NCBI GenBank assembly: GCA_914767715.1
Contig: OU612073.1
Location: 370,001-434,000 of the forward strand
Direction of reading: 5' to 3'
Source: Membranipora membranacea
Lineage: Eukaryota > Bryozoa > Gymnolaemata > Cheilostomatida > Membraniporidae
DNA length: 64,000 nt
Position 1 is the stretch's first letter; each line of letters starts with the position of its first letter. Below are positions 20,201 through 62,725 of the stretch, one piece after another. Position numbers and translations under genes: made by a program. Below the pieces are notes generated by a model, which was given only the letters and a program-made list of their open reading frames with translations, ran no database searches and was not told the origin of the DNA.

Positions 20201-23200
20201 ACTGAGTAGGGTTTATCTCCCTCGGTCTGATGTCAGTAAGAAACGGCTGCATCTCATTCTTCCTACAGCCAAAAGTAGGTGTGATCAACTTAGAAGAGCA
20301 TAACTCAACTTTATATTAATAGCTGTTACAAAGCGGATCATAGTAAGGTCTGAGGTGCACATTTTAATATACACTTAACTTCACACATCCTCGTGGGACT
20401 AAAGCGACTATCATGTGACTTCTCGGCCTTCTCATCGCTTCTCGGCCTATTGGCTAAGATCAAAGTGTCACTGCCAATGGCCGGAAAGTGCCAGCTCAGT
20501 TTGGGCAGCTTGCTGCACACTTATGATTAGGAGGTCCTCTATGGCCTCACCTCTAGGATGTATTCTAGTTTTCTAGAATGTATCACATTCTCAGTATGAG
20601 GATTAGGGCACCTTGTGTCCCTCTTTAGGGGCAGCCCAATCTTCTGTTTCTTAGCAAACGGCAAGAATCTCGGCCTTTTGGCTAAGATCAATGTGTCACT
20701 GCTAATGGCCGATAAGTGACAGTTTAAGTTTTGGTAGCTTTCTGCATACACAGTTCAGTGATATTTTATGGCCTCACATCTAGGACGCATTCTAGCTTTC
20801 TAGGATGTATCGCATTCTCAGTATGAGTATTTAGCGCACCTTGCGTCCCTCTTACTAAACAGCATGATTCAAGAATGTTTCTTTATAATAACTTCATGAT
20901 CAGTGAATATTAACCAATCCAAAGAGAATGTTTGTATCTATAGCGAGGCTAGTCTTTCTCTCTCACTACTCTGAACAGTTGGGCAGAATAAATAGCGATA
21001 ATCTGACATAGACTGAGAGTGACGTCTTATAACCCTTCATAGACTGAGAGGGGCGTCCTATTTACGGACTGAATGGGATACGACTTTTAATATATCACAG
21101 ACTGAGACTTACGCGTACATATCTACAGCCGATACCTTCTGGGCGTACCTACTCAGTAATGATGAGCTAATACTTATATCCGAATGTGATCTCAAATATC
21201 CAGTGAGCAGAAAAATAAGCATCTTTTAGATGAAAGTCCTAATCTTCTCAAGTTTGTACCCTATCTGCTGAAAATGTACAGATCAAGCAAGGAGTTAGAC
21301 CCCTTGGATTAAGTCAACATGGGATATTTTACTACATAATTATAATGTTTAAGGAGAGGTATACACCCAAAGGTGCTGGGGGCTGGAACAATCAACAATG
21401 AAAGCTCCCCCAGTGGGACTCAAACCCACAACTCCTCCGGCACTAATCGCCTGGCAGTGAATAGCAAGCGAGCTAACCGATTGCCATCTCACCATCCCCA
21501 GAAAAGAATGGGTCGATGGCGCTAATTAGATAGCCCGCTATTCACTACTCGGAGTTGTGTTCTCTCATCCCACAGCACATTACAATCCACCATTGCCACC
21601 CTATGAAACACACCGTACGTGTTAGGGTTATTGGCCTTACATGGCCCATTGCTGGCACCCCTTGTAGTAGGTTTAGCCTTGTTTAATGTTAGATAAGACT
21701 GCATTAATAAGGTGATATCCTCTCAGAAGGTCTTATGAGATCTTATGAAAGCAGCAGCAGCAGCAACTATCTCTACATAATCAGTTTCTAGTCTAAGCCT
21801 TTAGACAGTTGTTCGCACTGTTCTGCTGTTGTTAGAGCAGGTGTCACATAATTCCTGATCACATTGCTATAAGATCTCAGTCTACATACAGAGTCATATT
21901 AGCACAGATGACCTTAACTAGTACAATAGGCTATACATACACAGATACCTTCTTAGCGTCGCTGAAAATGATGGCTAGCTTAAAATCAGAGGTAGCCTTG
22001 AACTGTCAGATCATCTGACCATAGTATTATTGTCAAGATAGATGAGCGTATGATAAGTAGATCTACCCTTAGCACAATATAGGAGACTTTACTCAGACAA
22101 GTAGTCAGCATGACAGTAGCTGATGCACACTACAGGGAGGTACACAGAAATCACATAAAATCGCTCATAATGATTTATATTATATGTAATATGTATATCA
22201 TCTATCTTATATATACAATATATATATATATATATGATGTTCAAACTATTTATTAATCACTGATAATGATATATAATAATATACCTGTTTTGAAGAGCGG
22301 GTAGAGGACTTGGTTGATTAGGACGGCTCACAGCAGCTCTCGGTACAGGCGGACTTGGAATCTCCTTCAGCCTAGTAGGGGGAGGTTCTATACGAGGTGA
22401 CTTCTTATTCTCTTTGTTCTGTGAAACAAAGATAATAACTACAGTATTACAGAGCTACAGAGGTCACACTTTGATGGTCAGGATACTAGACTGGCATTGG
22501 GGAGGGTACAACGTCGATTGAATGCAAAAACGCTATTTTCAGTTGTTGTCCGCTCGTGTTCAAGGAGTGGGTAACTCCCAGACAAATTAACTAATTTGCT
22601 TGATTTTTACTCTTCACTGCTTTTAGAATGTCCTTAGTCTCTAAACAATATTTTTCAAATATTTTAGGAGATCAAATTTTAAGCTTTCATCCAGGTAACA
22701 ATGGATAGATCAGGGAATACCGGATCCTATCCGGCAAGAATTATTCCTGATAACCAATAAAATAATGAATTAAAATAATGTATCTGTGGAACATCGCTAA
22801 GCTATAATATAGCTGGTTACATTCCCTTACAATCACTTTATATGGCCAGTGTATAACTGGCTTTAAGTCCACAACACATATCTTGTCTTATGTCTGTGAT
22901 ATGTTTCTAATGTTCAATCCTACAAGGACCGTGTTTGCAATGATTTACTTCAGCTGTCTGAGCATGTTGGTAGGACAGCATTATATGATAAACTGCTGTC
23001 TAAAAAATTAATTTAATTCCATGCCTTCTTTTTCACACGGCTTCATTTGTCAAGATACATTTGACGGTGATTATAATTAAGTATATATAATAAAAAAAAA
23101 CTTATATATATAATGTTTTGCAGGTTTTATCTCATACTAGTTGACTTACAGACGAATGTTCCTGTAGAAGCTCATGTATATCCAGCTGTTTATACATCTG

Positions 23201-42769: not shown

Positions 42770-45700
42770 GACAGTAAGAATAAGATTCAGAATAAGCATC
42801 CCTCAGTCAGCTCAAAGAATCCTTTTTTGCAAGTTGGAGATCCTGCAGGGAGTATGAGTCTCACACAGTATAGAAAAAGACTGAAGCTAGCCACGGAAGA
42901 GAATATGTCAGAAGGTAAGGGTTATATAAGGGGAGTACGATACTTAACATAACCAGTTTATAATCGTGATGCATTATGAGACAAACTTTATACTGGTGTA
43001 GCACGGTAGTGATTATAGCCAGATCCCCTGTTTCACCGCTCCTTATACGCCACAGAACAAGCACCGAAGATCCAATGAGGTACTATTGCGCAGAGAATCA
43101 ACAATAAGGTTCTTCTTCTATGGCACCAAATATGAACAAACATTTACTAGGACGGCAGCATTGTCGAATAGAGTGTCAGATTCTGACATGGGGTCAGAAA
43201 TTATTGACCTTCTGAATGTGAAACTCAACCAACTTTCATTTGAGGAATTTCCCACATATTATCAAAGAGGGAAGGCAGAAAAAACTGTTTTTACTATTCC
43301 TCACCTATACTCACCTATCTCTGCTCTATCCTGTTCGAGTAGCGGGTGCCTGCTTGAGGCCTAGCTCTATCAAACTTCTCCATCTAATCCTGTCCTGAGC
43401 ATCCTCTTCATTGAGGGAACATCATTGGAGATCCTTCTTGATCGTATCCTTCCATCTATGCTCTGGGCATCCCCGATTTCTCCTTCTATCCACTCACTTC
43501 TCATGTACTCTTCTGAGGTCATCATATTCCTCTCTTCTGCACACATGCAAACACTGCAACCTTCTTCTTCTCATCAGGTCAAACACACTCATGACATTTG
43601 CTTCTTGCCTTATACTTTCGTTGGTTTTGTGCTTCTCAAGACTAATTCCAAGACAGTATCGCAACATTCTCATCTCACATACACTGAATCTTTCAGCAAG
43701 ATAATTTGTCAATGGCCATCTTTCAGATGAAAAAACATTACCTAGGCAGTAGGGCGGCTGCATTGTCGAAAATGTCTGAAGTCTGAATCTGACTAGCTGC
43801 TGAATGTGAAAAGCTCAAAAAAAATTTATTTTAGGAACTTCTTTCATATTATCAAAGAGGGAAGGCAAAACATGCCTTGATTAATTCATGTTCACAAACC
43901 CACTACTTACATCAAAATTGCTCATTTCAGCAAGTCAATGAGCCATCAAAGGCTGTAACCTGTCAACACATGATTTGATTTGTCACTGACATATATTATA
44001 TAGATGAGGGGAACATATCTGACCCTGAACAAGTGTTTGGTTATTCATGTATGGATGCTGGACGGCATTTCTCATCTTTGATTGGTCTACAAGTCCAGCA
44101 TCTATTATAGTTGTGCTCTTGTAAAATTTTGCCTGAGTTTTAAGGTTGTTACTGGGACATCAATCAATGCATAACGTAAAAGCTGCCAGATTCTGACCCA
44201 AAGTTATATGCTGATGGCATATCTCCACAAATAACCATGTTAGGCCTATGTATTTTACCACCGATCCATAAATTCATATCGATGGTGTTGATGATTCGAA
44301 CACCTTCAAGGTGATTTGGTGTGTTATAAAATAGCGCAAAAAGTGATTTGCATCAACTCTGCTATATCAACGTATGAAGGGCTCATCTGCATATATCATA
44401 GCATATAATCAGATGTTATTGTTACATATATTATATAGATAAGTACAGGGTATGGTTCAGACATACCGGGGAGGAGGTGATAGAGAAGATACCTTACATC
44501 GATCCCGTTATGTACAGAGAGATGACAGTGAGTGATATCGAGTTATCTAAGGGAGATAACTCTATCACTCATCTCTGTATCTACTCCCCACAGTGTATCC
44601 CTGACTGGATATCCAATGTAGCCCCTGATGTCGTACAGCTGAGACTGTGGAATATCAATAAGGAGTCACTGAGAGAGGATCGAGTACATTGGGAGAGGTA
44701 AGTTATCTTATTGGTACCCTAATTATTTTATACTGTAAATGTGAACTCTTTTAAACATATAGTATGACACACCTGACCTAATCTTTCAGTACCTTCAGGA
44801 TGGTGGTTCAATTGAAGTATATCGAAAATATCGAAAATAAAGTCAAATTCTACAATGTAGAATAAGCTTGTCAGGAATGACAGTATCTATGTGTAGTCTT
44901 GTTATCTGACACACTTATGATGATATTATGAGGAACAGACAGTGGGCGTGATATTGTAAAGCAAGTCATCTAGCGGGGCTGTATCCATGGGTTTAGAAAA
45001 TGTAGGTCCAGGTGGGGTGGGTGCTGTGAGCCTTCCCGCCAGGGGGCATAGGGGCCTCGCTCAGAAAATTTTGAAAAATCAGAGGCAGTTTTAAGGCATT
45101 CCAGCCCTTTTGGAGCGCAAAATTGACAGAATAAAGTATATTGTCCTAGACAAGATTTAAGAATAATAACAATCGTTTTTGTAAGAAATTTTTCGTCGAC
45201 ATTCTGATTTTATTGACCACCGCAGATAAGGCTTGCGATGAGATGCCATGAACTAGTCAACATTGACATAAGACAATCTCATGTGGAATGGACGAGATAA
45301 CTGATGAGTCCCCTCAAAATATCCGCGCCACAGAAATAAGATAAAGAAAGATAAGAAAAATGTTAATAAAATGCGTTAAAGAGTTAATAAATGCGGAGAC
45401 ACAACTCCAAATTACTAAAATAGTCACTGTCAAATTGGAACTATAATGGATGCGCTCACTATTCAATATTTGTTTTAAACTTTAAGTGATAGTTTCACAA
45501 TGTATGATGGTAATTGGTCGTAATACTGCATATATTTACGATGCTGTAGATTGAATGCTATCATCTTAAAAATGAATGTCTTATACTTAGGAAGGAATCA
45601 GCTGATCTTGTGGTTGGGGACATCCCTCTTTTGTTTACTGTTTACAAACAGTTTCTACATAGTGATTTGTGGTTGCATAATGAATGCTATAAATCATCCT

Positions 45701-48700
45701 TCGATGTATGCGGTAGTAGAGCTATTGACAGTGATCAGAGTGCACAATACACTGTTGCATTCAATAACTTTATCATGCATGCTCAGATTTTTTTGTCCTG
45801 CAGATATGTGAAAGTTCTTATGATGTGGTATAACTTACTTGCAGGGCTGGACCCATACCCTACCCAATGGATGTTTTTTCTGTTATGGCTACAAAGTGAG
45901 ATGTGATTATAGAGTAACCTGAGAATATGGTTATGATATCAGACTATTATGCCCTGAGGGCATTATGGTCTGGTGAAATTACATTTTCCTATGAGACCAG
46001 ATCTACATATACAATAAAATACCACATAATGTCCCAAACTATCAGACCAGATTTACTGTGCAAAATATTTGGAGTTGTTTTTGTTATCATGTGGCATATA
46101 AGATGATAAACCGTATATAGAGGAAAATGCACCGTAAACTGACATGGAAAAATGAGAACTTTTAGAATTATATCAAATTACTAAATAGTTAGGCTTGCTG
46201 GAAGTTGAGCAAATAACAATCAAACAAAGCAGTATTAATTTAGTATTTCAGGTTGGTAAAATGCGAACAGAACAATATACAAATTTTATTATTACTCCAC
46301 CCTGATTCCTTCAGAGATAAAGTCCAATATTAAAGGAAACAAAAAGTACCTGATATATTTTCATGTTTTTATCTCGTACTCAGGATTCCTCACCTATATA
46401 TACATTGTGTATAATGTGATGTTATCTTGTAGATTATCACAGTTAGATCAGCTCAAGGTGCTGGTTATATCGGGTAACCCTGCACTAGGAGCTGTACCAG
46501 AGGTAGTGTATAATCTGACACAACTTACTGAGCTGAGACTGGAGAGGTGTGGGATCACAGAGATAAGTGACAGGTATGTCAGAGTATCTTATACAGTCAG
46601 ATAGAACACTTTTACAACATTAACATTTATCCTAACAGCAATCAAGACAATAATAAAGTGTAATATAAAAGCAAATATCTGTTGTTGTTTTTTAAACTGA
46701 CCATGGGCTGTACTAACTCAGGTACTTGGCTATATTAGTGAGATATGATTTTTTGGAGTAACCTGAAAATATGGCTACGATATTAGTCTATAAGATATGT
46801 TCTGAGGGCGTTATGGTCTGGTAAAATTACATATCTTTATGCAACCACATCTACATTTACCATTAAATACCACATTATGTCCAAAAAATTTTATTGTGCA
46901 AATAATATTTGAACTTGTTTTTGTTATCATGTGGCATATAAGATTATAAACTGTATGTGGAGGGAACTGCACCATAGACTGACATGGAAAAATGTAAACT
47001 TTTATAATTATATCGAGTAACTCAATATTTGGGCTAGCTGGAAGCTGAGCAAATAACAATCAAACCAAGCAGTATTATTTTAGTATTTCAGGTTGGTTAA
47101 AAATAAATGGGCTCCATTTAATGAAAAGCCCAGATTGATGGAAACAAAAGTACCTGCTATTTTCATGTTTTTATCTCATACTCAGTATTCCTCACATATA
47201 TACATTGTGTATGACGTGATGTTTTATTGTAGATTATCACAGTTAGATCAGCTCAAGGTGCTAGACATCAGTGATAACCGTGCACTAGTAGCTATACCAG
47301 AGGTAGTGTATAATCTGACACAACTTACTGAGCTGAGAATGAGTGACTGTTGGATCACAGAGATGAGTGACAGGTATGTGAGAGTATCTTATACAGTCAG
47401 ATGGTACACTTATATATCATCATGGTTGTTTGTTCTGTTTATTAGTGCTGAATCCAAACAGTGATCGAGGCAATAACACATGTAATGTTAAACAAAGTAT
47501 TTTTTTTGGTATAAGCTGACCATGGGCTATACTTACTCAGTTACATGGCTACAACAGTGAGACGTGATTTTAGAGTAACCTGAGAATATGGTTATGATAT
47601 AAGACTATTATGCCCTGAGGGCGTTATGGTCCGGTAAAATTACATCTCTTCATGTAACCAGATCTGCATTTACCATAAAATACCACATAATGTCCCAAAC
47701 TATCAGACCAAATTTACTGTGCAAAATATTTGGAGTTGTTTTTGTTATCATGCGGCATATAAGATGATAAACCGTATATAGAGGAAAATGCACCGTAGAC
47801 TGACATGGAAAAATGAGAACTTGTGGAATTATATCAAATACCTAAATGGTTAGGGTTGCTGGAAGTTGAGCAAATAACAATCAAACCAAGCAGTATTAAT
47901 TTAGTATTTCAGGTTGGTTAAAAATAAATGGGCTCCATTTAATGAAAAGCCCAGATTGACGGAAACAAAAGTACCTGATATTTTCATGTTTTTATCTCAT
48001 ACTCAGGATTCCTCACCTATATATACATTGTGTATGACGTGATGTTATATTGTAGATTATCACAGTTAGATCGGCTTCAGGTGCTGGTTATATCGAATAA
48101 CCCTGCACTAGGAGCTGTACCAGAGGTAGTGTATAATCTGACACAACTTACTGAGCTGAGAATGCGGATGTGTGGGATCACAGAGATAAGTGACAGGTAT
48201 GTGAGAGTATCTTATACAGTCAGATAGCACACTTATATATCATGATGGTTGTTTGTTCTGCTTATTTGTGCTGAATCCCAACAGCGATCGAGACAATAAC
48301 ACATGTAATGTTAAACAAAGTATTTTTTTGGTATAAGCTGACCATGGGCTATACTTACTCAGTTACATGGCTATAATAGTGAGATGTGATTTGAGAGTAA
48401 CTTGAGAATATGGTTATGATATGAGGCTATTATGCCCTGAGGGCGTTATGGTCCGGTAAAATTACATATCTTCATGTAACCAGATCTACATTTACCATAA
48501 AATACCACATAATGTCCCAAACTATCAGACCAAATTTACTGTGCAAAATATTTGGAGTTGTTTTTGTTATCATGCGGCATATAAGATGATAAACCGTATA
48601 TAGAGGAAAATGCACCGTAGACTGACATGGAAAAATGAGAACTTTTGGAATTATATCAAATACCTAAATGGTTAGGCTTGCTGGAAGTTGAGCAAATAAC

Positions 48701-51700
48701 AATCAAACCAAGCAGTATTAATTTAGTATTTCAGGTTGGTTAAAAATAAATGGGCTCCATTTAATGAAAAGCCCAGATTGACGGAAACAAAAGTACCTGA
48801 TATTTTCATTTTTTTATCTCATACTCGGGATTCCTCACCTATAATTATACATTGTGTATAACGTGATGTTATATTGTAGATTATCACAGTTAGATCGGCT
48901 TCAGGTGCTGGATATAAGTCATAACCGTGCACTGAGAGCTATACCAGAGGTAGTGTATAATCTGACACAACTTACTGAGCTGGGACTGGCGGGGTGTGGT
49001 ATCACAGAGATAAGTGACAGGTATGTGAGAGTATCTTATACAGTCAGATGGTACACTTATATATCATCATGGTTGTTTGTTCTGTTTATTAGTGCTGAAT
49101 CCAAACAGTGATCGAGGCAATAACACATGTAATGTTAAACAAAGTATTTTTTTTGGTATAAGCTGACCATGGGCTATACTTACTCAGTTACATGGCTATA
49201 ATAGTGAGATGTGATTTGAGAGTAACTTGAGAATATGGTTATGATATGAGGCTATTATGCCCTGAGGGCGTTATGGTCCGGTAAAATTACATATCTTCAT
49301 GTAACCAGATCTACATTTACCATAAAATACCACATAATGTCCCAAACTATCAGACCAAATTTACTGTGCAAAATATTTGGAGTTGTTTTTGTTATCATGC
49401 GGCATATAAGGTGATAAACCGTATATAGAGGAAAATGCACCGTAGACTGACATGGAAAAATGAGAACTTTTGGAATTATATCAAATAACTGAATAGTTAT
49501 GCTTGCTGGAAGTTGAGCAAATAACAATCAAACCAAGCAGTATTATTTTAGTATTTCAGGTTGGTAAAACACGAACAGAACAATATACAAATTTTATTAT
49601 TACTCCACCCTGATCCCTTCAGAGATAAAGTCCAATATTAAAGGAAACAAAAAGTACCTGATATATTTTCATGTTTTTATCTCATACACAGGATTCCTCA
49701 CATATATATACATTGTGTATGATGTGATGTTATATTGTAGATTATCACAGTTAGATCAGCTCAAGGTGCTGCTTATATCGGATAACCGATGTTAGGTAAC
49801 CAAAAGTACCTGATATATTTTCATGTTTTTATCTCATACTAAGGATTCCCTACCTACAACAGATTGTTTATAATGTGATGTTATATTGTAGATTATCACA
49901 GTTAGAGCAGCTCAAGGTGCTGGACATCAGTCATTACCATGCACTGGGAGCTGTACCGGAGGGAGTGTATAACCTGACACAACTTACTGAGCTGAGAATG
50001 CGTGACTGTGAGATCAGAGAGATAAGTGACAGGTATGTGAGAGTATCTTATACAGTCCGATGGTACACTTATATATCATCATGGTTGTTTGTTCTGTTTA
50101 TTAGTGCTGAATCCAAACAGTGATCGAGGCAATAACACATGTAATGTTAAACAAAGTATTTTTTTTTGTATAAGCTGACCATGGGCTATACTTACTCAGT
50201 TACATGGCTATAATAGTGAGATGTGATTTGAGAGTAACTTGAGAATATGGTTATGATATGAGGCTATTATGCCCTGAGGGCGTTATGGTCCGGTAAAATT
50301 ACATATCTTCATGTAACCAGATCTACATTTACCATAAAATACCACATAATGTCCCAAACTATCAGACCAAATTTACTGTGCAAAATATTTGGAGTTGTTT
50401 TTGTTATCATGCGGCATATAAGGTGATAAACCGTATATAGAGGAAAATGCACCGTAGACTGACATGGAAAAATGAGAACTTTTGGAATTATATCAAATAC
50501 CTAGCAGTATTAATTTAGTATTTCAGGTTGGTTAAAAATAAATGGGCTCCATTTAATGAAAAGCCCAGATTGACGGAAACAAAAGTACCTGATATTTTCA
50601 TGTTTTTATCTCATACTCGGGATTCCTCACCTATAATTATACATTGTGTATAACGTGATGTTATATTGTAGATTATCACAGTTAGATCAGCTCAAGGTGC
50701 TGGACATCAGTCAGAACTGTGCACTAGGAGCTGTACTGGAGGTAGTGTATAATCTGACACAACTTACTAAGCTGGATATGAGTTATTGTGGGATCACAGA
50801 GATAAGTGACAGGTATGTGAGAGTATCTTATACAGTCAGATAGTATACTTATATATCATCATGGTTGTTTGTTCTGCTTATTAGTGCTGAATCCAAACAG
50901 TGATCGAAGCAATAACACATGTAATGTTAAACCAAGTATTTTTCTTGTATACGCCGACCATGGGCTATACTTACTCAGTTACATGGCTATAATAGTGAGA
51001 TGTGATTTGAGAATATGGTTATGATATGAGGCTATTATGCCCTGAGGGCGTTATGGTCCGGTAAAATTACATATCTTCATGTAACCAGATCTACATTTAC
51101 CATAAAATACCACATAAAGTCCCAAATTATCAGACCAAATTTATTGCACAAAATATTTGGAGTTGTTTTTGTTATCATGCGGCATATAAGATGATAATCT
51201 GTATATAGAAGAAAATGCACCGAAACTGACATGGAAAAATGAGAACTTTTGGAATTACATCAAATACCTAAATGGTTAGGCTTGCTGGAAGTTGAGCAAA
51301 TAACAATCAAACCAAGCAGTATTAATTTAGTATTTCAGGTTGGTTAAAAATAAATGGGCTCCATTTAATGAAAAGCCCAGATTGACGGAAACAAAAGTAC
51401 CAGATATTTTCATGTTTTTATCTCATACTCAGTATTCCTCACATATATACATTGTGTATGACGTGATGTTTTATTGTAGATTATCACAGTTAGATCAGCT
51501 CGAGGTGCTGAATATCAGTGTAAACCGTGCACTAGGAGCTGTGCCGGAGGGAGTGTATAATCTGACACAACTTACTGAGCTGAGACTGGAGGGGTGTGGG
51601 ATCACAGAGATAAGTGACAGGTATGTGAGAGTATCTTATACAGTCAGATAGTACATTTATATATCATTATGATTCTTGATTTTGTATTAGCTTAGCCTGA

Positions 51701-54700
51701 GCTGTATTTTCTCCTATACCCGGCTGTGAATAATATGGAAATATTCCCTGATGGCAAGTTTCACCGAATCACATTTTTTGCAAACCAGATTTAAATTTAC
51801 CCTTAGACACCCATCTATTCAAAATATCAACAAAATATTTGTGTGTGCAAAATTATTAGGAGTTGTCTCATATTTATCACAGATACTTCATAAACGATCA
51901 CAGATACTTCACTCTTTATTCAATATTAATATTAGAGAATATAGTTGTCACATCATGAACCAGTGATATCATGAATAGCTTATTCGCTTTCGGCCCATTG
52001 TTATCAATAGCTGTGTACAGGTGCTTAGTTGGCTATTTATCTTGTTAGTTCTATTTCAGTATATCAATTATTGTTAGTATTGTAATCATAATCATCGCTC
52101 AGGCCAAGCAATAAAAATCTCGAAGCCCAACCTTTCCATTCTTGATAAAATACCTCTTTTTTTTTATTCGAATTTTATCATAACATGAACGTGAATTTAA
52201 TGCCATCACGAATAATTTCAGCCAGCTCTGTCATGTGATATATGGTTATGCGGTTGATGTAGCCTCCAGTTTTTATCTTCCAGTCAGACAGTCATTACCA
52301 CTATGCCTTGACTTCATTACAGCCCTCCGTACAGTTGTTCTCTTTGTTGTGTCCGTGATTTCAGATCAGTCTCTCAGTTTTTTTATGTATCGTTAAGTTG
52401 CATCCTTATATCTGAGCCTAGGTCTAACCTGACTTTCCCCTCTCATGGCTTTGGGAGTACAGTTTATGTCCAGGAAGCCGATCATTGGTCATCAAGTTTA
52501 CGTTGGAACGATCTCAGGTTTCTCTCTATGAGAATAAAATAAGCTGTACCAGACAGGAAGGCATTGGAGCACAATCCACGGTCTCAATATACCTTATCTT
52601 ATCACATCATCCGGTATTCGTCACGCATCTCAGTTCTCTCATCATGTAGGCATTTTGCTTCTTAACTTGTGTCCTCTATATCGTCCAGCTTTCATCTCCA
52701 TGTATATATACATATATATAATATATATATTGCCTTATAATCAACGCTGTGTATCTTTGGCTCTGGTGGCAACAACGCACTGTCCTCAGTAAAAAACATC
52801 TCTCTTACTAGAATAGGTATCTGGCGGGGCGAGCTATTGTCTTGTAGCATTGAGACACTCTAAAGAGATCTGCCTAATGCATTGTCTATATGAGAATCCC
52901 TTCTTTTGTATCCTTGGATGCAAATTTTAGTACAGTGTAAGCTGGTTAATTCGGACTTCATATTTGGGAACTCCCGATGATTCAGACAATGAAAATTGGT
53001 CCCTTCAGCCAGATCTCAGTGCATTCTAATGTCACTTAATTCAGACTCGGCTTAATTAGGCCGAAGTTTTGTGGTCTCCAGAAGTTTGAATTTGTCTGTC
53101 CTTGTTTGGGGTCTGCTCATTGTCAGCCTAATTGTCGTATTAATCTAGGAATGTCACTGAATTTAGGTCAAGATCTAGGTCTCACCCTTTATTTTCAGAA
53201 TGAAATACTATCACAGGTTATTGCTTCAATAGATATTGTAGTGTTTATATAATAATATAGGTGTGGTTTTCATGCACTCTTTTGAGATATTGATATTGAT
53301 TATGATACCTCAATGTCTTTAGGTCTTCCTCAAGTAAAGAAGGGTTAATTCCTTTACCATAAAAACAAATATTGTTTTGAAATGTGTAAATTTACCCTGA
53401 ATAAAAATAACCATGTGTGGAAAGGGAAAAGCAGGTCATCTACCCGTGATAATCTACATTCTTCTCTGCAGATGCAGTTTTATAGTTTGGATGCAGCTTT
53501 GAATGTGTTCACTTTACAGAGTTTTATGTATTGTAGATTGTCAGATCTCACAGAGCTTGAGGTACTGGAAATAGGATGGAATGAGTTCATCACACTCCCT
53601 ACAGCAATTCTCAAATTAACTAAACTGAAGACACTGGACCTTATGGATAACGAAAGTCTGCAGTCATTAGATTCCCGTCTGTTACTTCTACCTGCTCTGG
53701 AGAAGCTGGAATGCAGAGGTTGTGAAGCTCTGATATCTCCACCTTATGCAGTCTGTCAGCAGGGTCTGCAGGCTGTAAAACAGTATTACACAGATCTCAA
53801 ACAAACAGGAGGAATAAAACTTCCTATAGTCTCTGCTGCAGTGATAGGAAACAGGATGGCAGGTAAAACTAGTCTGATAAACAGTCTGAAAGCCCGAGAA
53901 CGTAAACTCACGTATCGTAACAAGGAGGGAGAGTATGATAACACAACTGAGGTGTTCAAAATAGAAGAGATTGAAATGGGAGATTCACAGTTAAAAGTGT
54001 TTGACTTTGGAGGTGACCGAGTGTATAACATGACTTATGTTATGACGATTCGTAGTAACTACATTCCGGTAGTTGTTGTGAATATGGAGGATTTTGACCA
54101 GCTATCTACTTCGGCTGGATCTAAGGAGGCTGTTAGGATCCTCTTAGTTGATTATATGGCCCATCTTTATACCACATGCCCTCAGCTTGGTCAACCGTTT
54201 CTCATTCTCACCCACAAAGACATATTAGACAAGAGGCCTGGGAGTTTTGAAAAGAAAAAAAACGAGCTTCTAGCATCTCTCCAGGAGCTCTGTGAAGAGA
54301 TTGTTGCAGAAGAGAAGCATTTCTCAAAAGGGACATCGGACTTCTGTAAGATCAAACTATTTGAGAAGAAGGGTGAATTTATCTCCTCTCATAATATTTT
54401 CACGCTCAGCGAAACTGATGTAAGTAATGAAGTCATCCTCCAGATATTTGATCGGCTCCAGACACGGGCTGAACCATTCTTCACTGTGCTTCCGAAATTG
54501 TGGGAACTTTTAATTAGCTTCTTTGACAGCATGATTGATGGCTCGTTCATTCTCCTCACTGATGTACAAGGGAGATTCCCTGGGGACGGAAACTTCACTG
54601 CCCTTCGCACCATGCACAACATCGGAAGAATTCTCTGGTTTGAACATGATGAGACCTTGAGAGGATTTGTTTTTCATAAGCTGACTGCAGTGACGGACAT

Positions 54701-57700
54701 GATTGCTTTACTGTTTCATCACAGATCAACTGATCTATGGAAGTCTCGTGTCAATGCTCAGCCAAACTTCATGACTATTGGAGAAGAGCACATTCCGAAA
54801 ATAAAGTACAGTCAGCTTGTTGATGATTTTATTCAGACAGGGGTTATCGATGAGGTTGTTTTGCTTAGTCTGTTCAGAGATGGAAGTTTTCCCCAGGACA
54901 TAGCATTGTCCCTACTAAAGAAATTTAACCTGCTATGTGGGCCCATACATGTGTCACCCAGGAAAACATACATAATCCCTTACTTCTCTAAAGACCAAGT
55001 GGATCTCAGCCCAGCAGACAACAAGCTACTTCAGCTTAGAGTTGACATTAACTTTATTGGCCTTTCTCCACCCTCCTATGTCTACAGTCTTCTTACTTGT
55101 AAGTTCCTATCTGCGTACACCAATCCCAGTCTGCACATCCGGGCAGCACAAAATGGAGCATTGGTGGAAGATGGCGACACTTGTATCCGTCTGGTACATA
55201 CCTGCATTCAACGTAGAGTCACTGTACAAATAGATACACCAGTAGCAGAAATCGATTCTTCCTGGAAGCAGCTGATCAGCATCACAGACTCTCTAATCAA
55301 TCACCTGCTGTCTATCTGGGTCGCAGCTCGACCTATATGTGAGTTCTACTGTGCACACTGTCTGTATCTACACGAGTCTGAGCCTAAGAAGGAGATTGAT
55401 CCAGATTGGTATTCTCCTCTCCGACCTGCCAACAAACACAAGCCTCTATCTCACCAGCTGCAAACACTATTCACTGATGCTAAGCCAGTGCGCTGTGGCA
55501 GACTCAAAGTACCAAAACCTCTGAGATTTCCATGTAGGTTCACTTCACTACACTTACATTTTTTTATTCTGCTCAAAATATCGATTATAATCAATAATAA
55601 TCAATTATATTTATTTAACCTTCTGTTTAGCCCCTTGATATTCTTTGTTTTATTCAGGCTTTAGCCTAACAGATAAAGACAAAAAGAGTATCGAAGACTT
55701 CATAACATTGCTAACAGACACATCTGTGCACCAGGGTAAGTGAGTTTGTTTGTTTGTTTGTTTAATTTATACTCTTTATCCAAAGATGTTTAAAACATAC
55801 ACGATACAGTGATGTAATAAAACATACACACATAGTAGGTACCTACTATGTGTGTATGCAGTTAAATTTTCTATTGCTTGAAACTAGTTGGTTATTTGGG
55901 ACATCATAATATATTTATCCATCATGCCAAATGTTCTTTATGGCTGCATAAGCTTAAGTACATCGTCAAAACAAAAAAGTTTTATCCACCACCTTCACAA
56001 ATCTACCCGGTCAGTAGAGGTTGTAGAGGGAGGGTCCGGGTGAGATGCTTCCAGTAATGAACCACAATTCAAGATAATGATTGTTATGTACTTTTCCTGT
56101 AGCATGTCGTGCAGTAGAAGTTACACAAGGACCAGCAGGTGGAGATACAGGCCGTAATGAACTCGAGGCTAATGAGGGAGCTATAGATGAGGTCATTGAG
56201 CTGATGACATCACAACCACCATATATTAACATCCAGCCCACCATTAGTCAGCCAGGATCCAACTCATTGCCACAGAGTACGGTATGTTATATAATTGTAC
56301 AATAGATAGCTCTGATTACTCTGATCGATTGTAAGTGGCAAGTACTGGTATGGCTTTGATGAAGATGGCTACTTATTTTTGGAAATAATTTAACACTATA
56401 GAATGTCATTTTCTGTCATAATATAACTTGCTTTATTAACCACATAACCATCATAATAACTAATACTGTAAATCTCCCTTTCTCTCTATGAGTGAGAGTA
56501 TAATAAGGAAGCTCTGAGACCAAAGAGCCATACAACATTAAAACTAATGTGATATGATTATAGGGGAGATATAAGATGACTAAGACAAGAGGTCGAGCTC
56601 TCATATTATCTAATAAGTATGAGTACACTAATCAACGAGGTCAACAAGTCTGGAGAAAGGGTGCTGACATAGATCATGAGAATATGAAGAATATGCTGGA
56701 GAACTTTGGGTTTGTTGTGAATGGAGAGTATAAAAACTACACTTCAGAGGTAACACATTCAATATAATCCATTACTATAATGTGAACAAGAAATGCACCA
56801 GATTGAAAGATTGAGCTTTCATGTATTTCACGGAACCCAGCAATATTATTGATGAAGGCTGTCACATTCCCCCAATTTTCTTATAAAATAAACATGTTTG
56901 TTTATAAAGGATATGGTGACCGAGATTCACAGAGAGACCCAGCTGGTAGACCAGACAGGCCAGTCGGTATACAAAGATCTAGGAATGTTTGTACTGGTTA
57001 TCACTAGTCATGGCGCTGAAGGAACTGTTGTCGGATCTGATCACAAACACATCAAACTTACTGATATCTATCAGTTATTATCTGCTAAAAACTTCCCGGC
57101 TATGAAAGGAAAACCAAAACTCTTAATAATACAAGCCTGTGCCGGAGGTTAGTACGTCTGCTACAATTAAAGAATTATGACAAGCAGAAACAACAGGTAC
57201 TGTTGGTATCTGACATCAATGTAACATTACCAACAATGCGAATCCTTGAGACAGAAGTTAGAATCTATCATAATTATTATTATTATTATTATCATATATT
57301 TATTGCCGACATGTTCTGAGCTATCAGATGTTTTGTACCAACAATGTCTCATCAATATTTCGTGTCATATCCTGTGATGAATTTCTATTTGCAGTTAACA
57401 GAGAGACGATGACAGACTCGGTAAATGACACAGCTGTTGATCAGCAGTATAACAGACAGGAGGTGACATCACAGACAGCAGATTATGGACATGTAGACTC
57501 AGAGCCCAGTGATATCTCTGTGGCTAATCTGTTTGTCATGCAAGCAAGCTTTGATAGTAAGTGACATCTGAGCCTATCTGCCACAGACTGAAAGTTTACC
57601 GCCTTTTCACAGCAGTATAGATGCAAAATCTCAAAAAAGAAGAGGGATGGGTTTGCACGTTGCGGATTATCATCTCTCAGAATTTTTGTGAAATATTTCC

Positions 57701-58794
57701 TAAACTAATACCCTTTTGATTGTTCAGTTCAGTTGTACAAGTTAATATAAACTGATTCAAAACTGTTGATATCACATTCAACTGTTATTCTATACATCTC
57801 TTTGATATGGTCAATCATTCTAATCTGTTGAAAATTTTCCTCTTCAGCATTTGTGTCAATAAGATCGACAGATTTGGGATCTCAATTCATCAGAGCTGTG
57901 GTTGTGACTTTCTACAAGTATGCTCATAAACAACACCTACAGACTCTGGGGAATATGGTAAGTTTCTTATATAGAAATATGTTTCATTTCTGCTCTACAG
58001 TAAATGATATGATAGTCTGATATATCAGACTGGGTATCATTCCGATCAGAGAGTTGTCCCAAAGCTTTTTTATCATCCCGCCCTCCTTGTCGATGATATT
58101 TGATGATAAATTATGATTGTTATATGCTAAACAAGAATGAGGATCAATATAGAACAGGGATATAAGACGTGTCAATTGGAATAATTCAAACGAACATGTG
58201 TTAGTTGTGGTTGCTGTGGTTGCTGTAGTGACCTTGGCGTGGTTACAAATATTGTATTCAGTTATTGAGCCTATGGGTATTATTTCTGTCTTGACAGATC
58301 CAGAAAGCTGTCAGTAAGAGCAGCGTGCAGAGAACTGATGAACTCAGGCAGATAGTGTCACCTCAGGATAGAGAGAAGGCGTATGTAGCTCAGATGCCTA
58401 TGTGTAACAGACCACTCTACCTAGAACCAGGAATAGATATGAGACATCTAGGAGAGCATCCAGCTAGTGTTACTACTGATGTCAGAGATCCTAATCCTCC
58501 CCAGACTACGATCTCCTGGCTCGCTGGTATAAATAATACATTGATAATCTACTTAGCAATCAACTCTCAAACCTATCATGTGCAGTTATACTTCAGTCAC
58601 TCATAAAACTTCCCTTTATTTAGGCCAGTAGAGCTGCGCCAATGACCTGATATTTCATACAATCAGTCAATTATGTGATTAAGTTAAATGAAACATTTTC
58701 TCGTGTATTTATAGATGATGTAGTGACAACACGCGGAGGAGGAGGAGCTACAACCTCACAGAATATCAGAAAATGGAGAATAGACAGGACATGA
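42770..58794 (+). CDS. LRR-ROC-COR-caspase fusion protein
   Basis: Exons: 42770-42914, 44439-44697, seven LRR cassettes (46433-46573, 47233-47373, 48056-48196, 48880-49020, 49892-50032, 50672-50812, 51480-51620), 53537-55533, 55658-55735, 56103-56281, 56564-56749, 56910-57147, 57395-57556, 57848-57957, 58298-58526, 58715-58794 (TGA). They sum to 4650 nt in one frame, about 1521 residues if translation starts at MSLTQYRKRL in the first exon; further 5' exons are possible. Order: N-terminal linker, about 15 LRRs, ROC GTPase (GNRMAGKTS; DFGGD; THKD), COR, Pro/Gln-rich linker, caspase p20 (histidine in SHG, cysteine in QACAG) and p10 (FVSIRSTDLGSQFI), then a Gly-rich tail. Inferred: LRRs sense, ROC-COR switches by GTP and dimer state, caspase executes. 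No death domain, CARD or kinase is seen. Confidence 0.87.
43149..43290. repeat. Direct repeat, left copy
   Basis: Shares GGCAGCATTGTCGAA, CTGAATGTGAAA and CATATTATCAAAGAGGGAAGG with 43752-43880. The LINE fragment lies between the two copies. Both are in the first identified intron of the ROCO-caspase gene. Confidence 0.6.
43355..43763 (-). mobile_element. LINE reverse-transcriptase C-terminal fragment
   Basis: The minus strand encodes 'MRMLRYCLGISLEKHK' and 'LMRRRRLQCLHVCRREE', typical of the segment after the reverse transcriptase of many non-LTR elements. A frameshift separates it from an end near 43355-43420 that is similar to the fragment at 122-325. It sits between two direct repeats. 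Confidence 0.7.
43752..43880. repeat. Direct repeat, right copy
   Basis: Second copy of 43149-43290, more degenerate, directly after the LINE fragment. Confidence 0.55.
43980..44250 (+). repeat. Unclassified interspersed repeat, second copy
   Basis: Matches 35200-35460 over most of its length, with indels and an in-frame stop. It ends about 190 bases before ROCO-caspase exon 44439-44697. Confidence 0.6.
44698..46432. other. ROCO-caspase intron upstream of the LRR cassettes
   Basis: A 1.7-kb intron. From about 45890 on it is the intronic part of the first cassette repeat unit (GTGAGATGTGATT...). The earlier part holds no feature I recognise. Confidence 0.5.
45890..51650 (+). repeat. Tandem array of about 820-bp LRR-exon cassettes
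   Basis: Seven full units plus one broken unit. Each consists of about 680 bases of near-identical intron and one 141-nt exon. Every exon has the acceptor TTGTAG|ATTATCACAG, ends GACAG|GTATGT, and keeps the same phase, so any number can be added or skipped without frame loss. Each encodes 47 residues, that is two LRRs (LSQLDQLKVLxIS... and YNLTQLTELxLxxC...). Unit starts are near 45894, 46737, 47556, 48379, 49205, 50217 and 50995. Shared intron segments include TGCCCTGAGGGCGTTATGGT. Confidence 0.95.
49741..49795 (+). pseudogene. Truncated LRR cassette exon
   Basis: Begins like the other cassettes (ATTATCACAGTTAGATCAGC) but after about 50 bases runs into the intron part of the next unit (GGTAACCAAAAGTACCTGA). 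In frame it reaches TGT TAG, so splicing it in would end the protein. It looks like the product of an unequal deletion between neighbouring units. Confidence 0.75.
51621..53536. other. ROCO-caspase intron between LRR array and ROC exon
   Basis: A 1.9-kb intron. No repeat family or extra exon is recognised, apart from a TA-rich tract near 52705-52735. The open frame running into the ROC exon from 53382 is intron read-through, because the conserved acceptor TATTGTAG|ATTGTCAG is at 53537 and keeps the cassette phase. Confidence 0.55.
53537..55533 (+). other. ROC-COR exon of the ROCO-caspase gene
   Basis: One 1997-nt exon (665 residues). It begins with the last LRRs (LSDLTELEVLEIGWNEF and LKLTKLKTLDLMDN), then a linker and the ROC domain. 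G1 is GNRMAGKTS near 53849-53875, the G3-like segment is DFGGD, and the G4-like segment is THKD, similar to the THLD of LRRK2. COR follows ('ILWFEHDETLRGFVF', 'FLLCGPI'-like stretch) to about residue 620. The residue after DFGG is Asp instead of the Gln common in small GTPases, so intrinsic hydrolysis may be altered. The donor is CCAT|GTAGGT, which gives the frame needed by the next exon. Confidence 0.85.
56564..58794 (+). other. Caspase domain exons of the ROCO-caspase gene
   Basis: Six exons. The p20-like part has the start YKMTKTRGRALILSN, an S1-pocket-like WRKGADID, the histidine motif VITSHGAEG and the nucleophile in QACAGG (TGT near 57138). The linker exon 57395-57556 is acidic (DSEPSDIS) and could hold an inter-subunit cleavage site. 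The p10-like part has FVSIRSTDLGSQFIRA, keeping the S1 arginine position of caspase SWR. All residues needed for catalysis appear present. No separate promoter or start is seen before 56564, and the frame continues from COR through two linker exons, so the domain belongs to the same gene. Confidence 0.85.
57265..57305. repeat. (TTA)n microsatellite
   Basis: AATTATTATTATTATTATTA in the intron between the two caspase exons that flank the active-site cysteine. Confidence 0.8.
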
Positions 58795-60359: not shown

Positions 60360-62725
60360 TATGTTTGTATGTATGTTTGTATTTTTGTTCCTCCTAAAAT
60401 CAACAGTGCGATGTACCGGAGTGAATTCCACTAGAAAAAAAAATTAAGTCAGTAAAATACACAGTAGTAAAATATAAAATGATAAAAATGGTCACTAAAA
60501 ATTATATTAAAAATTAGAGTATTTATAAAAAAAAGTGTTTCGTAGCTTTTCAGTCCGACAGCGGGGCATCTGGGTGGCAAGTGACACCCGAGTCTATCGC
60601 CCACTCTTCCTTATTATCAGCTTGTTGAGTGGGTGTCCCTCGTCATTAAAAATGTTGGACATGGCGTTATGTGACAGGTGAGCTATAAACTCTGTGATGT
60701 ATGGCAGCTGATAATGGCGTACAACATCTTCATGGTGCATATCACTGTTGATGACTTTCATTGCTCGCTTTTCTACCTGTATCACCTACTCCAGAGACCG
60801 CTTGGTAATAAGTGAACCCCACATTGGGCATGCATATGTGAGCACGGACCAAATGTTGGCTGTGTAGTATAGTCTGAGGCCTTGTGCGTTCAGCCCTAGT
60901 CTTTTCAGTTCCCTCATGCCATATAGACGGCGAGCTAGGCGGTCACATATGTCATCAATGTGGTCGGAGAAAGTTATCCTCTGATCAACTGTGATGCCTA
61001 GTAACTTAGCATTTGAGGATACTTCGAGATTATGCTGGTCTGATAAACTTAGGTGCAGGATCTTAGTCTTAGAGGCGTTTATCAGCATGTTGTTGTCTCT
61101 AGCCCAGCGAGAGATGTCATCTAGTGCTGTTTGGAAATAATTCACAGAGAGAGATCAGATTTTTGAAAGGCAGTATACAGAGTCAGATCATCTGCATATT
61201 TTATGATCTTGCATTCAGGAGACATGGTCAGATCGTTGATATAGATCAGCCAGAGCAATGGGCCCAGCTTCGTCCCCTGAGGCGCACCCATAGTCACATG
61301 TTTATACTCAGACTGCTCACCAAGCTTGACACGGCACTGTCTGTGACTCAGAAAATTATCAATCAGGTTGATCAGTCCACTGTTTACCCCTAGTGTTTGG
61401 AGTTTTCTTATCAGGCGGTTTGGATCTAGGCGATCAAAAGCCTTGGACATGTCGATAAAGGCGGTAGTGACGTGGCTAGTTTTCTTGTTGTCTAGATATT
61501 GGCACCAGTCATGAGTGGCATGTAGCAGGGCGTCGGTCGTGGAGAGGTGCTTTTGATATGCATATTGACTTATATCCAGTTTATTGCTGATATTCGATTT
61601 CAGTCTCTCAAGGATTACTTCTTCTGCAATCTTGCCAATATAATGTAGAAGTGAGATTGGTCTGTATTGCTCTAGAGTTGATGGATTTTTCACTTTTTTC
61701 AAGGGGATAATCTCAGCCTTTTTCCATTCTTCGGGATAGGTGTTGGTGGCTAGCATGGCATTCATAATATCAGTTATTGGTATGCAGAAGTCTTCTGCTG
61801 CTGCTTTCGATATCCATGCTGGGTAGTCATCAGAGCTGGTTGATTTGCTGGTATCAATTTGTGTCAGGAGTTTTTTGATCTTGCCTATACTCACTGGTTC
61901 TAGACAAGCAGGCTGCAGCTGGGGCTTATCGGTGTTTTCTCTTTCTCCCCTACAGAAACGAAGTAGTCATTGAGCGATGAGACAAATTTTTCTGTGCTTA
62001 CCCAGTCTCCATCAATAAGGTGGTGATTGGAGCTGAATTCCAGATGTTTGCCTTCAAGATCACGAATAGTCTTCCACCATGTTTTAGATGTTGAAGCTCT
62101 GCTTAGCTTTGTAATTACATATTCAGTCTTACGACGCCTCATCAGTGATTTGGATAGCGTGCTTAGGAATTTCCATGCCGTTTTATTCTTAGCATATGCG
62201 CGATCTCGGGCTTTCATCACCTTGAGAATGGTACTGTTAATGTACTGCTGTTGGTTTTCCCTGGTTTTGTAGGTCTGGTACGGGCAATGTCGGTCCAGAA
62301 TAGATCTTATGGTGTTATTCATGATTTCTGTCTTGGTATCTACACATTTTGCCTGAAGTACTTCAGACCATTTTGGTGTAGGTATATCTGCGAGCACTTG
62401 TTGTTTGGTGTGAGGAGTTATCTTCCTACGCTTCACGTGTACATACTTGTTCTTACTAACGACAGCACTAACTATGAATATTGAATACAGCACAGTGGTC
62501 ATTCTCATTACCTACTAAAGAAGGTAATTTTACAGGCGCAGGGTATTTAGCATTTGTAAGAATCTGATCTAGTGTATGGACACCCCTGGTGGCAAAATTG
62601 ATACATGGCATAAGGTTGAACTCAGAACAGAAAAATTCTAGTGGAATTCTATTGAAATCACCTACTAGTAGGATTTTGCTATTGGTATACTTGATGAAGC
62701 CTGTCCCCGTCACTGATTTGTGTAT
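60360..62725 (-). mobile_element. 5'-truncated LINE (Jockey/CR1-group-like) in caspase-relic intron
   Basis: The minus strand carries, in order, the end of an endonuclease (LLVGDFNRIP; DHCAVF, about 62730-62470), a linker, reverse transcriptase (YRPISLLHYIGKIAEEV; AFIDMSKAFD; GAPQGTKLGPLLW; IKYADDLTLY at about 61894-61142) and a thumb/C-terminal part to the stop near 60594. Frameshifts break it into at least four frames. The 3' end has a tail of ACATACAAAC repeats (about 60360-60395). On both sides, sequence similar to the intact caspase intron continues, which fixes the insertion borders near 60360 and 62725. The element is inactive. Confidence 0.88.

What the first reader, a model, noticed from the sequence alone, without database searches (positions are those of the whole stretch)
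42770..58794. A leucine-rich-repeat ROCO GTPase fused to a caspase
Seen: exons with LRRs, ROC (P-loop GNRMAGKTS), COR and then a caspase with SHG and QACAG join in one continuous frame of about 1500 codons. Established: animal ROCO proteins (LRRK1/2, DAPK1, MFHAS1) carry kinase, death or no effector domains; I know of no described animal ROCO with a built-in caspase. Inference: a one-chain sensor-switch-executioner where GTP-dependent ROC-COR dimerisation brings two caspase domains together, like a covalent PIDDosome or inflammasome.
Basis: partly seen in the sequence, partly recalled or inferred. Interest (0 to 1): 0.92.

Follow-up and report, generated by a model that had tools for sequence, protein, structure and literature searches.

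The report
Leucine-rich sensor GTPase with built-in caspase
A gene of the sea-mat bryozoan Membranipora is predicted to encode a single protein that joins a variable leucine-rich sensor, a GTPase switch and a caspase protease; dozens of related genes lie in the same genome, and they likely act as one-piece alarm-and-kill receptors.

Summary
Eighteen predicted exons at 42854-58794 join through GT-AG sites into one open frame of 1,521 codons: LRRs, ROC, COR, a linker and a caspase. A model of the ROC-COR exon folds like LRRK1/LRRK2 and bacterial Roco. The caspase keeps SHG and QACAG. The window is chromosome 9 of the bryozoan Membranipora membranacea.

The pairing is a family trait. Of 53 ROC-COR or COR-A loci in two capped searches, 40 (this one included) have caspase exons just downstream on the same strand, 11 were not examined and 2 lack them. 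Public gene models of the bryozoan Watersipora show one fused protein.

LRR exons are 141-nt phase-2 cassettes that vary mostly at concave-face positions. Neighbouring genes are mosaics, as if LRR, ROC-COR and caspase segments had been exchanged separately.

The kind is not wholly new: bacterial LRR-ROC-COR proteins with C-terminal caspases are in print, and amphioxus 'LRRs-caspase' genes are probably the same architecture. No paper listed in seven searches names a bryozoan one. Transcripts, GTP cycling and protease activity are untested, and the proposed GTP-driven dimerisation runs against the bacterial Roco cycle.

The parts
42854..42914 (+). exon 1, predicted start codon and N-terminus
   Evidence: ATG, donor GTAAGG, frame continues
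44439..44697 (+). exon 2, N-terminal region ahead of the LRR array
   Evidence: GT-AG, in frame; 73% and 86% identical exon found in two neighbouring paralogs
46433..46573 (+). exon 3, LRR cassette 1 (141 nt, phase 2)
47233..47373 (+). exon 4, LRR cassette 2
48056..48196 (+). exon 5, LRR cassette 3
48880..49020 (+). exon 6, LRR cassette 4
49741..49794 (+). truncated LRR cassette (pseudo-exon), not in the gene model
   Evidence: frame reads ...CRLSQLDQLKVLLISDNRC then stop; the same truncated form twice in paralog c9_480
49892..50032 (+). exon 7, LRR cassette 5
50672..50812 (+). exon 8, LRR cassette 6
51480..51620 (+). exon 9, LRR cassette 7
53537..55533 (+). exon 10: last LRRs, ROC GTPase (GNRMAGKTS) and COR
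   Evidence: Pfam Roc over cut-off; AlphaFold model matches LRRK1/LRRK2/CtRoco
55658..55735 (+). exon 11, linker; the motif PLRFPCF.LTD spans the exon 10/11 junction
   Evidence: same motif in one piece in Watersipora P0001
56103..56281 (+). exon 12, linker
   Evidence: related peptide (AGGENVRND..NNEEAVDEIIELM.SQPP) in 12 of 13 related loci, weaker in L020; mild purifying constraint
56557..58794 (+). tract 96-98% identical to paralogs c9_480 and c9_534 (running on past the gene end), beginning 7 bp before exon 13
56564..56749 (+). exon 13, caspase large subunit, first part
   Evidence: Pfam Peptidase_C14
56910..57147 (+). exon 14, caspase large subunit with SHG and QACAG
   Evidence: Pfam; caspase-2 in PDB 1.3e-15
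57395..57556 (+). exon 15, inter-subunit linker and start of small subunit
57848..57957 (+). exon 16, caspase small subunit (SIR)
58298..58526 (+). exon 17, caspase small subunit end
58715..58794 (+). exon 18, C-terminal tail and stop codon

Best explanation
This is a predicted 18-exon gene for one 1,521-residue LRR-ROC-COR-caspase protein, one of a large family in Membranipora membranacea, and it likely works as an intracellular receptor that turns on its own caspase. Shown by sequence: the open spliced frame, intact catalytic motifs, 40 loci in this genome (this one included) with caspase exons just downstream of ROC-COR, LRR cassettes that differ mainly at concave-face positions, and a mosaic pattern in which LRR, ROC-COR and caspase segments of neighbouring genes have different closest relatives. 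Predicted: the splicing and the ROCO fold of exon 10. Inferred: the LRR face binds a foreign or self-marker ligand; binding lets the LRR swing off the ROC-COR switch and changes its nucleotide and dimer state; two caspase domains then pair, cut their own Asp-containing inter-subunit linker and start cell death or an inflammatory cleavage. Whether GTP makes or breaks the dimer is open. The repertoire of distinct LRR faces would serve immunity or colony allorecognition.
For: One open frame of 1,521 codons through 18 exons. Full-length homologs in another bryozoan: P0001 aligns at 33% identity over 92% of query residues 436-1521, and 11 of 13 hits in the Watersipora search, the query P0001 among them, carry the caspase family (capped candidate list). 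In this genome 29 of 44 ROC-COR exons (window gene included) have a caspase hit within 6 kb downstream on the same strand, none upstream and none on the other strand; chromosome 9 alone gives 19 of 25 against a local null mean of 1.7 and maximum of 8 in 5,000 shifts. Reading fetched loci adds 4 of the 15 misses and brings the COR-A list to 7 of 9. Against 11 paralogs ROC-COR dN/dS is 0.11-0.21 (silent sites near saturation) and caspase 0.05-0.48 in the 9 not saturated. Of 16 ROC-COR-linked loci whose exon-14 match reaches the pentapeptide, 15 keep HG and QAC[AS]G. Of 24 intact LRR cassettes from four genes all 24 peptides differ; pN is 0.478 at eight concave positions and 0.061 elsewhere. Mosaic structure.
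Against: No transcript or protein data. Function, ligand, GTP cycling and proteolysis are untested. COR-A is below Pfam's cut-off. The full-length Watersipora model was poor (pLDDT 52.7, pTM 0.35), so the domain arrangement is not modelled. One paralog, L035, has lost both catalytic motifs, and 7 of the 44 ROC-COR matches hold a stop inside the match, so some members may be broken. pN/pS over whole LRR cassettes is about 1, not above it. GTP monomerises bacterial Roco, which does not fit a simple GTP-dimer-caspase picture. Eleven of 53 loci were not examined.
Confidence: 0.62

Rival explanations
1. Two adjacent genes, an LRR-ROC-COR gene and a caspase gene, that have stayed next to each other and happen to be readable as one frame.
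For: No transcript crosses 55533-56564 here. Neighbouring genes c9_534 and c9_642 share 95% DNA up to +2018 from the start of exon 10 and then nothing alignable, so the caspase half behaves as a separate unit in recombination.
Against: Frame and splice phases fit through exons 10-13; Watersipora gene models hold both halves in one protein with a matching linker motif; exon 12 between the halves is a conserved peptide with mild purifying constraint, Fisher p below 0.05 in 6 of 13 related loci, which are not independent; where a caspase hit lies within 6 kb of a ROC-COR hit it is downstream on the same strand in 29 of 29 cases.
Confidence: 0.08
2. The protein is a fused but catalytically silent scaffold or decoy, like cFLIP, in which the caspase domain regulates other caspases.
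For: Family member L035 has lost both catalytic motifs; the window pentapeptide is QACAG rather than the R, Q or G forms named for amphioxus (PMC2575513 passages).
Against: 15 of 16 readable loci keep the His and QAC[AS]G; the window gene keeps them, and caspase dN/dS is below 1 in the 9 paralog comparisons not saturated.
Confidence: 0.12
3. An ordinary cell-death regulator of colony life (polypide regression, zooid turnover), expanded by drift, with no recognition role.
For: Bryozoan zooids degenerate and regenerate (recalled, no call); tandem arrays expand readily.
Against: Variation is focused on concave LRR positions and the number of LRR cassettes differs between four neighbours, 4, 5, 7 and at least 8, as expected of ligand diversity rather than drift.
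Confidence: 0.18

Closest known systems
Bacterial LRR-AP-GTPase(Roc)-COR conflict proteins with variable C-terminal effectors (Kaur et al. 2021, PMC8195603; passages and section 15 read)
   Same: LRR, Roc, COR, then an effector; caspase is among the at least 24 effector types listed; predicted counter-invader role.
   Different: Bacterial; several effector types in one genome. Here an animal gene family; caspase is the effector seen in the loci read, other effectors were not searched for.
Amphioxus LRR-ROC-COR-caspase proteins (P0003, P0004, P0011-P0018, P0020), probably the 'LRRs-caspase' hybrids of PMC2575513 (passages read)
   Same: Same domain order; intact QACxG reported for the hybrids in that paper.
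   Different: The paper's text does not contain the word GTPase. Amphioxus ROC-COR groups apart from the bryozoan one and mixes caspase-type with GT4-type members; the caspases also group apart in a small tree. Probably independent fusions.
Brown-algal LRR-ROC-COR immune-receptor candidates (PMC11378527; abstract and section 11 read)
   Same: Phase-2 LRR exons, exon shuffling, variation at concave-face sites, ROC-COR switch.
   Different: 72-nt exons for one LRR against 141-nt exons for two here; the abstract gives LRR-ROC-COR as the architecture, without a caspase.
LRRK1/LRRK2, DAPK1, MFHAS1 (animal ROCOs)
   Same: LRR-Roc-COR fold of LRRK1 and LRRK2.
   Different: Kinase, death domain or no effector (recalled); no caspase.
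NLR inflammasomes and the PIDDosome
   Same: LRR or other sensor, NTP switch, caspase as executioner (recalled).
   Different: Here caspase and sensor are one chain; no NACHT, CARD or death domain was found by Pfam.

Membership tests
ROCO protein | Roc GTPase domain with P-loop | tested here: met
   Pfam Roc 4.8e-6, 27.2 bits against cut-off 27; GNRMAGKTS; fold match
ROCO protein | COR domain directly after Roc | tested here: met
ROCO protein | GTP binding and hydrolysis | not testable with these tools
   needs protein
Caspase (Peptidase_C14) | Peptidase_C14 domain over its length | tested here: met
   4.3e-31, profile 1-222 of 233
Caspase (Peptidase_C14) | catalytic His and Cys (SHG, QACxG) | tested here: met
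   LVITSHG and IIQACAG in exon 14
Caspase (Peptidase_C14) | proteolysis after Asp | not testable with these tools
   needs protein
Initiator caspase with death-fold prodomain | CARD, DED or death domain before the caspase | tested here: not met
   no such Pfam match in any part of the chain at E up to 1
NLR / inflammasome sensor | NACHT domain | tested here: not met
   no NACHT match; the switch is Roc
Bacterial-type LRR-Roc-COR-effector conflict protein | variable LRR, Roc-COR, C-terminal effector | tested here: met
Bacterial-type LRR-Roc-COR-effector conflict protein | response to invaders | not testable with these tools
   no functional data
Brown-algal-type shuffled-LRR ROCO | phase-2 LRR exons with concave-site variation | tested here: met
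   seven 141-nt phase-2 exons; concave pN 0.478 against 0.061; no site-model test
Brown-algal-type shuffled-LRR ROCO | alternative splicing of LRR exons | not testable with these tools
   no RNA

The most novel reading that the evidence does not exclude
Membranipora carries a three-module, combinatorial receptor system: LRR cassettes, ROC-COR switches and caspases recombine as separate segments between tandem genes, and phase-2 LRR exons could also be spliced in different sets, so that one colony builds a private repertoire of single-chain sensors that each carry their own executioner. It would be the bryozoan counterpart of an inflammasome repertoire, used against pathogens or in colony allorecognition.
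Probability: 0.35. Interest if true: 0.87.

Novelty: new variant of a known kind. Interest (0 to 1): 0.73.

Why it matters
It would put sensor, GTPase switch and death protease in one animal polypeptide, so that how a ROC-COR switch drives an effector, a question central to LRRK2, could be read out as proteolysis. It also offers a natural system in which the recognition surface varies fast while the switch stays constrained and the caspase half appears to be swapped or homogenised between genes. The one search made for bryozoans together with caspases or immune genes listed no paper on bryozoan immune receptors among its 12 rows; immunity and allorecognition in these colonies would gain concrete candidate genes.

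Tried and rejected
Sponge origin was my first guess from the LRR and caspase content; assembly lengths show Membranipora membranacea instead.

Full-length model of Watersipora P0001: pLDDT 52.7, pTM 0.35, not used.

An exclusive clade of bryozoan and amphioxus ROCO-caspases was looked for and not found, in small trees. The caspase tree used hand-picked rows: 16 homolog ids were tried, and P0043, P0044, P0051 and P0017 dropped out for lack of a motif match; P0042, P0045, P0047, P0049 and several amphioxus ids were not put in. In the ROC tree 18 ids were tried; P0008 and P0051 dropped out. L036 was left out of the discordance trees because too little of exon 13 was aligned, and the caspase rows of several loci there are partial; c2_816 rests on exon 13 alone. 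L009 and L010, caspases with no ROC-COR match in the DNA held, were not counted in the 16 loci read for catalytic motifs; L009 has no QACxG.

The exon-versus-intron contrast is strongest for the 400 bp after exons 4-8 (intron 96.5%, exon 85.8%). Over all seven cassettes the downstream mean is 80.3%, because exons 3 and 9 are followed by different introns, and the 100 bp upstream is 90.3% against 86.3% for exons. The eight concave sites come from the recalled LxxLxLxxN pattern, but I had seen the seven-exon variation before fixing them; one of the eight, position 12, is not among the twelve most variable sites, and position 41 ranks tenth. One longer and two truncated cassettes of c9_480 were left out of the 24. 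No site-model test of selection was run.

The Rfam scan of the window found nothing at gathering score. Literature searches for an animal ROCO-caspase listed no paper whose title or abstract start names one. Only the open-licence library was searched, each call listed at most 20 of up to 79,072 matching papers, and most were seen as listings only.
Full report
WHERE IT IS. The window is G000:C9:370001-434000 of a 339,339,785-base assembly. Its contig lengths (C1 41,072,641; C10 24,422,204) equal the longest scaffold and N90 given in the genome note for Membranipora membranacea, and C9 (25,735,955) fits chromosome 9, 25.74 Mb (PMC10290214, section 5 read). So the window is chromosome 9 of a cheilostome bryozoan.

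IS IT ONE GENE? Four lines agree; none is a transcript. First, the frame. Second, relatives in Watersipora subatra are single proteins with the same order: P0001 aligns at 33% over 92% of query residues 436-1521, and the motif PLRFPCF.LTD, split by intron 10 here, is continuous there. In the Watersipora search 11 of 13 hits, the query included, list Peptidase_C14 (only the candidates sharing most words were scored). Third, position: of 44 ROC-COR exons found in the genome (44 of 669 candidates were scored; three matches are partial and 7 hold a stop inside), 29 have a caspase hit (one search lists 145 hits; 140 of 515 candidates were scored) within 6 kb downstream on the same strand, 0 upstream and 0 on the opposite strand. 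On chromosome 9 this is 19 of 25 against a mean of 1.7 and a maximum of 8 in 5,000 local shifts. Reading loci recovers 4 of the 15 misses (L018-L021), and 7 of the 9 COR-A loci also have caspase exons (L031-L036, L038). In all, 40 of 53 loci, the window gene included, have them; 2 do not (L037, L039, read in 10 kb, which also did not match this gene's ROC-COR); 11 were not read. Fourth, exon 12, which lies between the halves, is a conserved peptide with fewer replacement than silent changes per site; Fisher p is below 0.05 in 6 of 13 loci, which are not independent.

CONSTRAINT AND ACTIVITY. Against 11 paralogs dN/dS is 0.11-0.21 for ROC-COR (silent sites near saturation), 0.27-0.60 for the linker and 0.05-0.48 for the caspase in the 9 that are not saturated, several of them over part of the domain only. 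The LRR end of exon 10 gives 0.65-1.55 against the four nearest paralogs and 0.22-0.43 against the other seven. Of 16 ROC-COR-linked loci whose exon-14 match reaches the pentapeptide, 15 keep HG and QAC[AS]G; L035 has lost both and may be a natural dead copy.

THE SENSOR VARIES. From the window gene and three neighbours (c9_480, c9_534, c9_642) I took the 24 intact 141-nt LRR cassettes found in the sequence held: 7, 8, 5 and 4 (the array of c9_480 may run on upstream). All 24 peptides differ. At eight positions of the two LxxLxLxxN/C strands pN is 0.478 and pS 0.374; at the other 39 pN is 0.061 and pS 0.092; the six positions with highest pN are all among the eight. Whole-cassette pN/pS is about 1. 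For exons 4-8 the coding cassettes are 85.8% identical but the introns after them 96.5%; the contrast is weaker upstream and absent where the flanking intron differs. The high pS at the same sites suggests that cassettes were mixed from a pool, not only point-mutated (inference).

THE MODULES LOOK EXCHANGED. c9_534 and c9_642 are 95% identical from -4580 to +2018 around exon 10 and then show no match. The window gene and c9_534 are 94-100% identical from -300 to about +450 (LRR end and start of ROC), 62-80% through the rest of ROC-COR, and 96% from 7 bp before exon 13 to beyond the gene end. Trees agree: c9_642 and c9_534 are sisters by ROC-COR (support 0.90), but by caspase c9_534 joins c9_480 and the window gene (0.86) and c9_642 joins a chromosome-2 gene (1.00, exon 13 only for the latter). 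The simplest reading is that segments carrying the LRRs, the switch and the caspase have moved separately, by gene conversion or unequal crossing-over. A mis-assembly is possible but unlikely in a HiFi assembly with contig N50 of 7.0 Mb.

HOW IT LIKELY WORKS. LRRs recognise, ROC-COR switches, the caspase executes. In the C. tepidum Roco protein GTP opens the LRR away from ROC-COR and breaks the dimer (PMC11052575 passages). Initiator caspases are turned on by pairing (recalled). I commit to ligand-driven release of the LRR followed by caspase pairing through ROC-COR or a higher assembly, self-cleavage in the Asp-containing linker of exon 15, and cell death. For this protein all of that is inference.

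AGAINST WHAT IS KNOWN. Kaur et al. 2021 list caspase among at least 24 C-terminal effectors of bacterial LRR-AP-GTPase-COR proteins (PMC8195603 section 15). Zhang et al. 2008 list amphioxus 'LRRs-caspase' hybrids; the word GTPase is absent from that text (PMC2575513 passages). In the amphioxus-seeded search 11 of 34 rows, the query included, carry both Roc and caspase families in the precomputed lists, while most others carry GT4, OTU or Death. The bryozoan ROC-COR groups apart from the amphioxus ones, among which caspase and GT4 types mix, and bryozoan ROCO-caspases group with two other Membranipora caspases rather than with amphioxus ones. These small, hand-picked trees favour independent fusion. 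Brown-algal LRR-ROCOs use 72-nt phase-2 LRR exons with selected concave sites (PMC11378527 section 11), a striking parallel. Seven literature searches listed no paper naming a bryozoan ROCO-caspase.

VERDICT. A well-supported fused gene model and a large, diversifying family: a new variant of a known kind. Function remains inferred.

Noticed in passing
G000 (Membranipora membranacea), chromosomes 1, 3, 5, 8, 9, 10, 11: 145 caspase-exon matches (140 of 515 candidates scored), many in tandem clusters; the caspase content of this genome looks very large.
   Followed up: partly
L035 (G000:C10:22185400-22195399): A ROC-COR locus with caspase exons whose catalytic motifs read STG and QSVEG, apparently a natural inactive copy.
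   Followed up: no
window 61142-61966 and 61900-62511, - strand: Reverse transcriptase frame (RVT_1 4.2e-25) and an overlapping upstream frame without a Pfam match: a retroelement piece 3' of the gene.
   Followed up: no
window 16540-16922: 39-bp unit repeated 9.8 times at 98% match.
   Followed up: no
window 20440-20853: 228-bp unit repeated 1.8 times; its start resembles the U2 snRNA 5' end (recalled), but no Rfam match at gathering score.
   Followed up: partly
L043 and L044, about 3.2-4.0 kb: A second caspase fragment downstream of the paralogs' caspase; in L043 its exon-14 piece carries a stop: probably a relic copy.
   Followed up: no
P0005, P0019, P0021-P0027, P0029-P0040 (Branchiostoma): Amphioxus COR-B proteins, most with LRR and Roc, that carry GT4-conflict, OTU or Death families; all but P0019 lack the caspase. 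Three of them (P0005, P0022, P0024) were put in the ROC tree and fall among caspase-type amphioxus members.
   Followed up: partly
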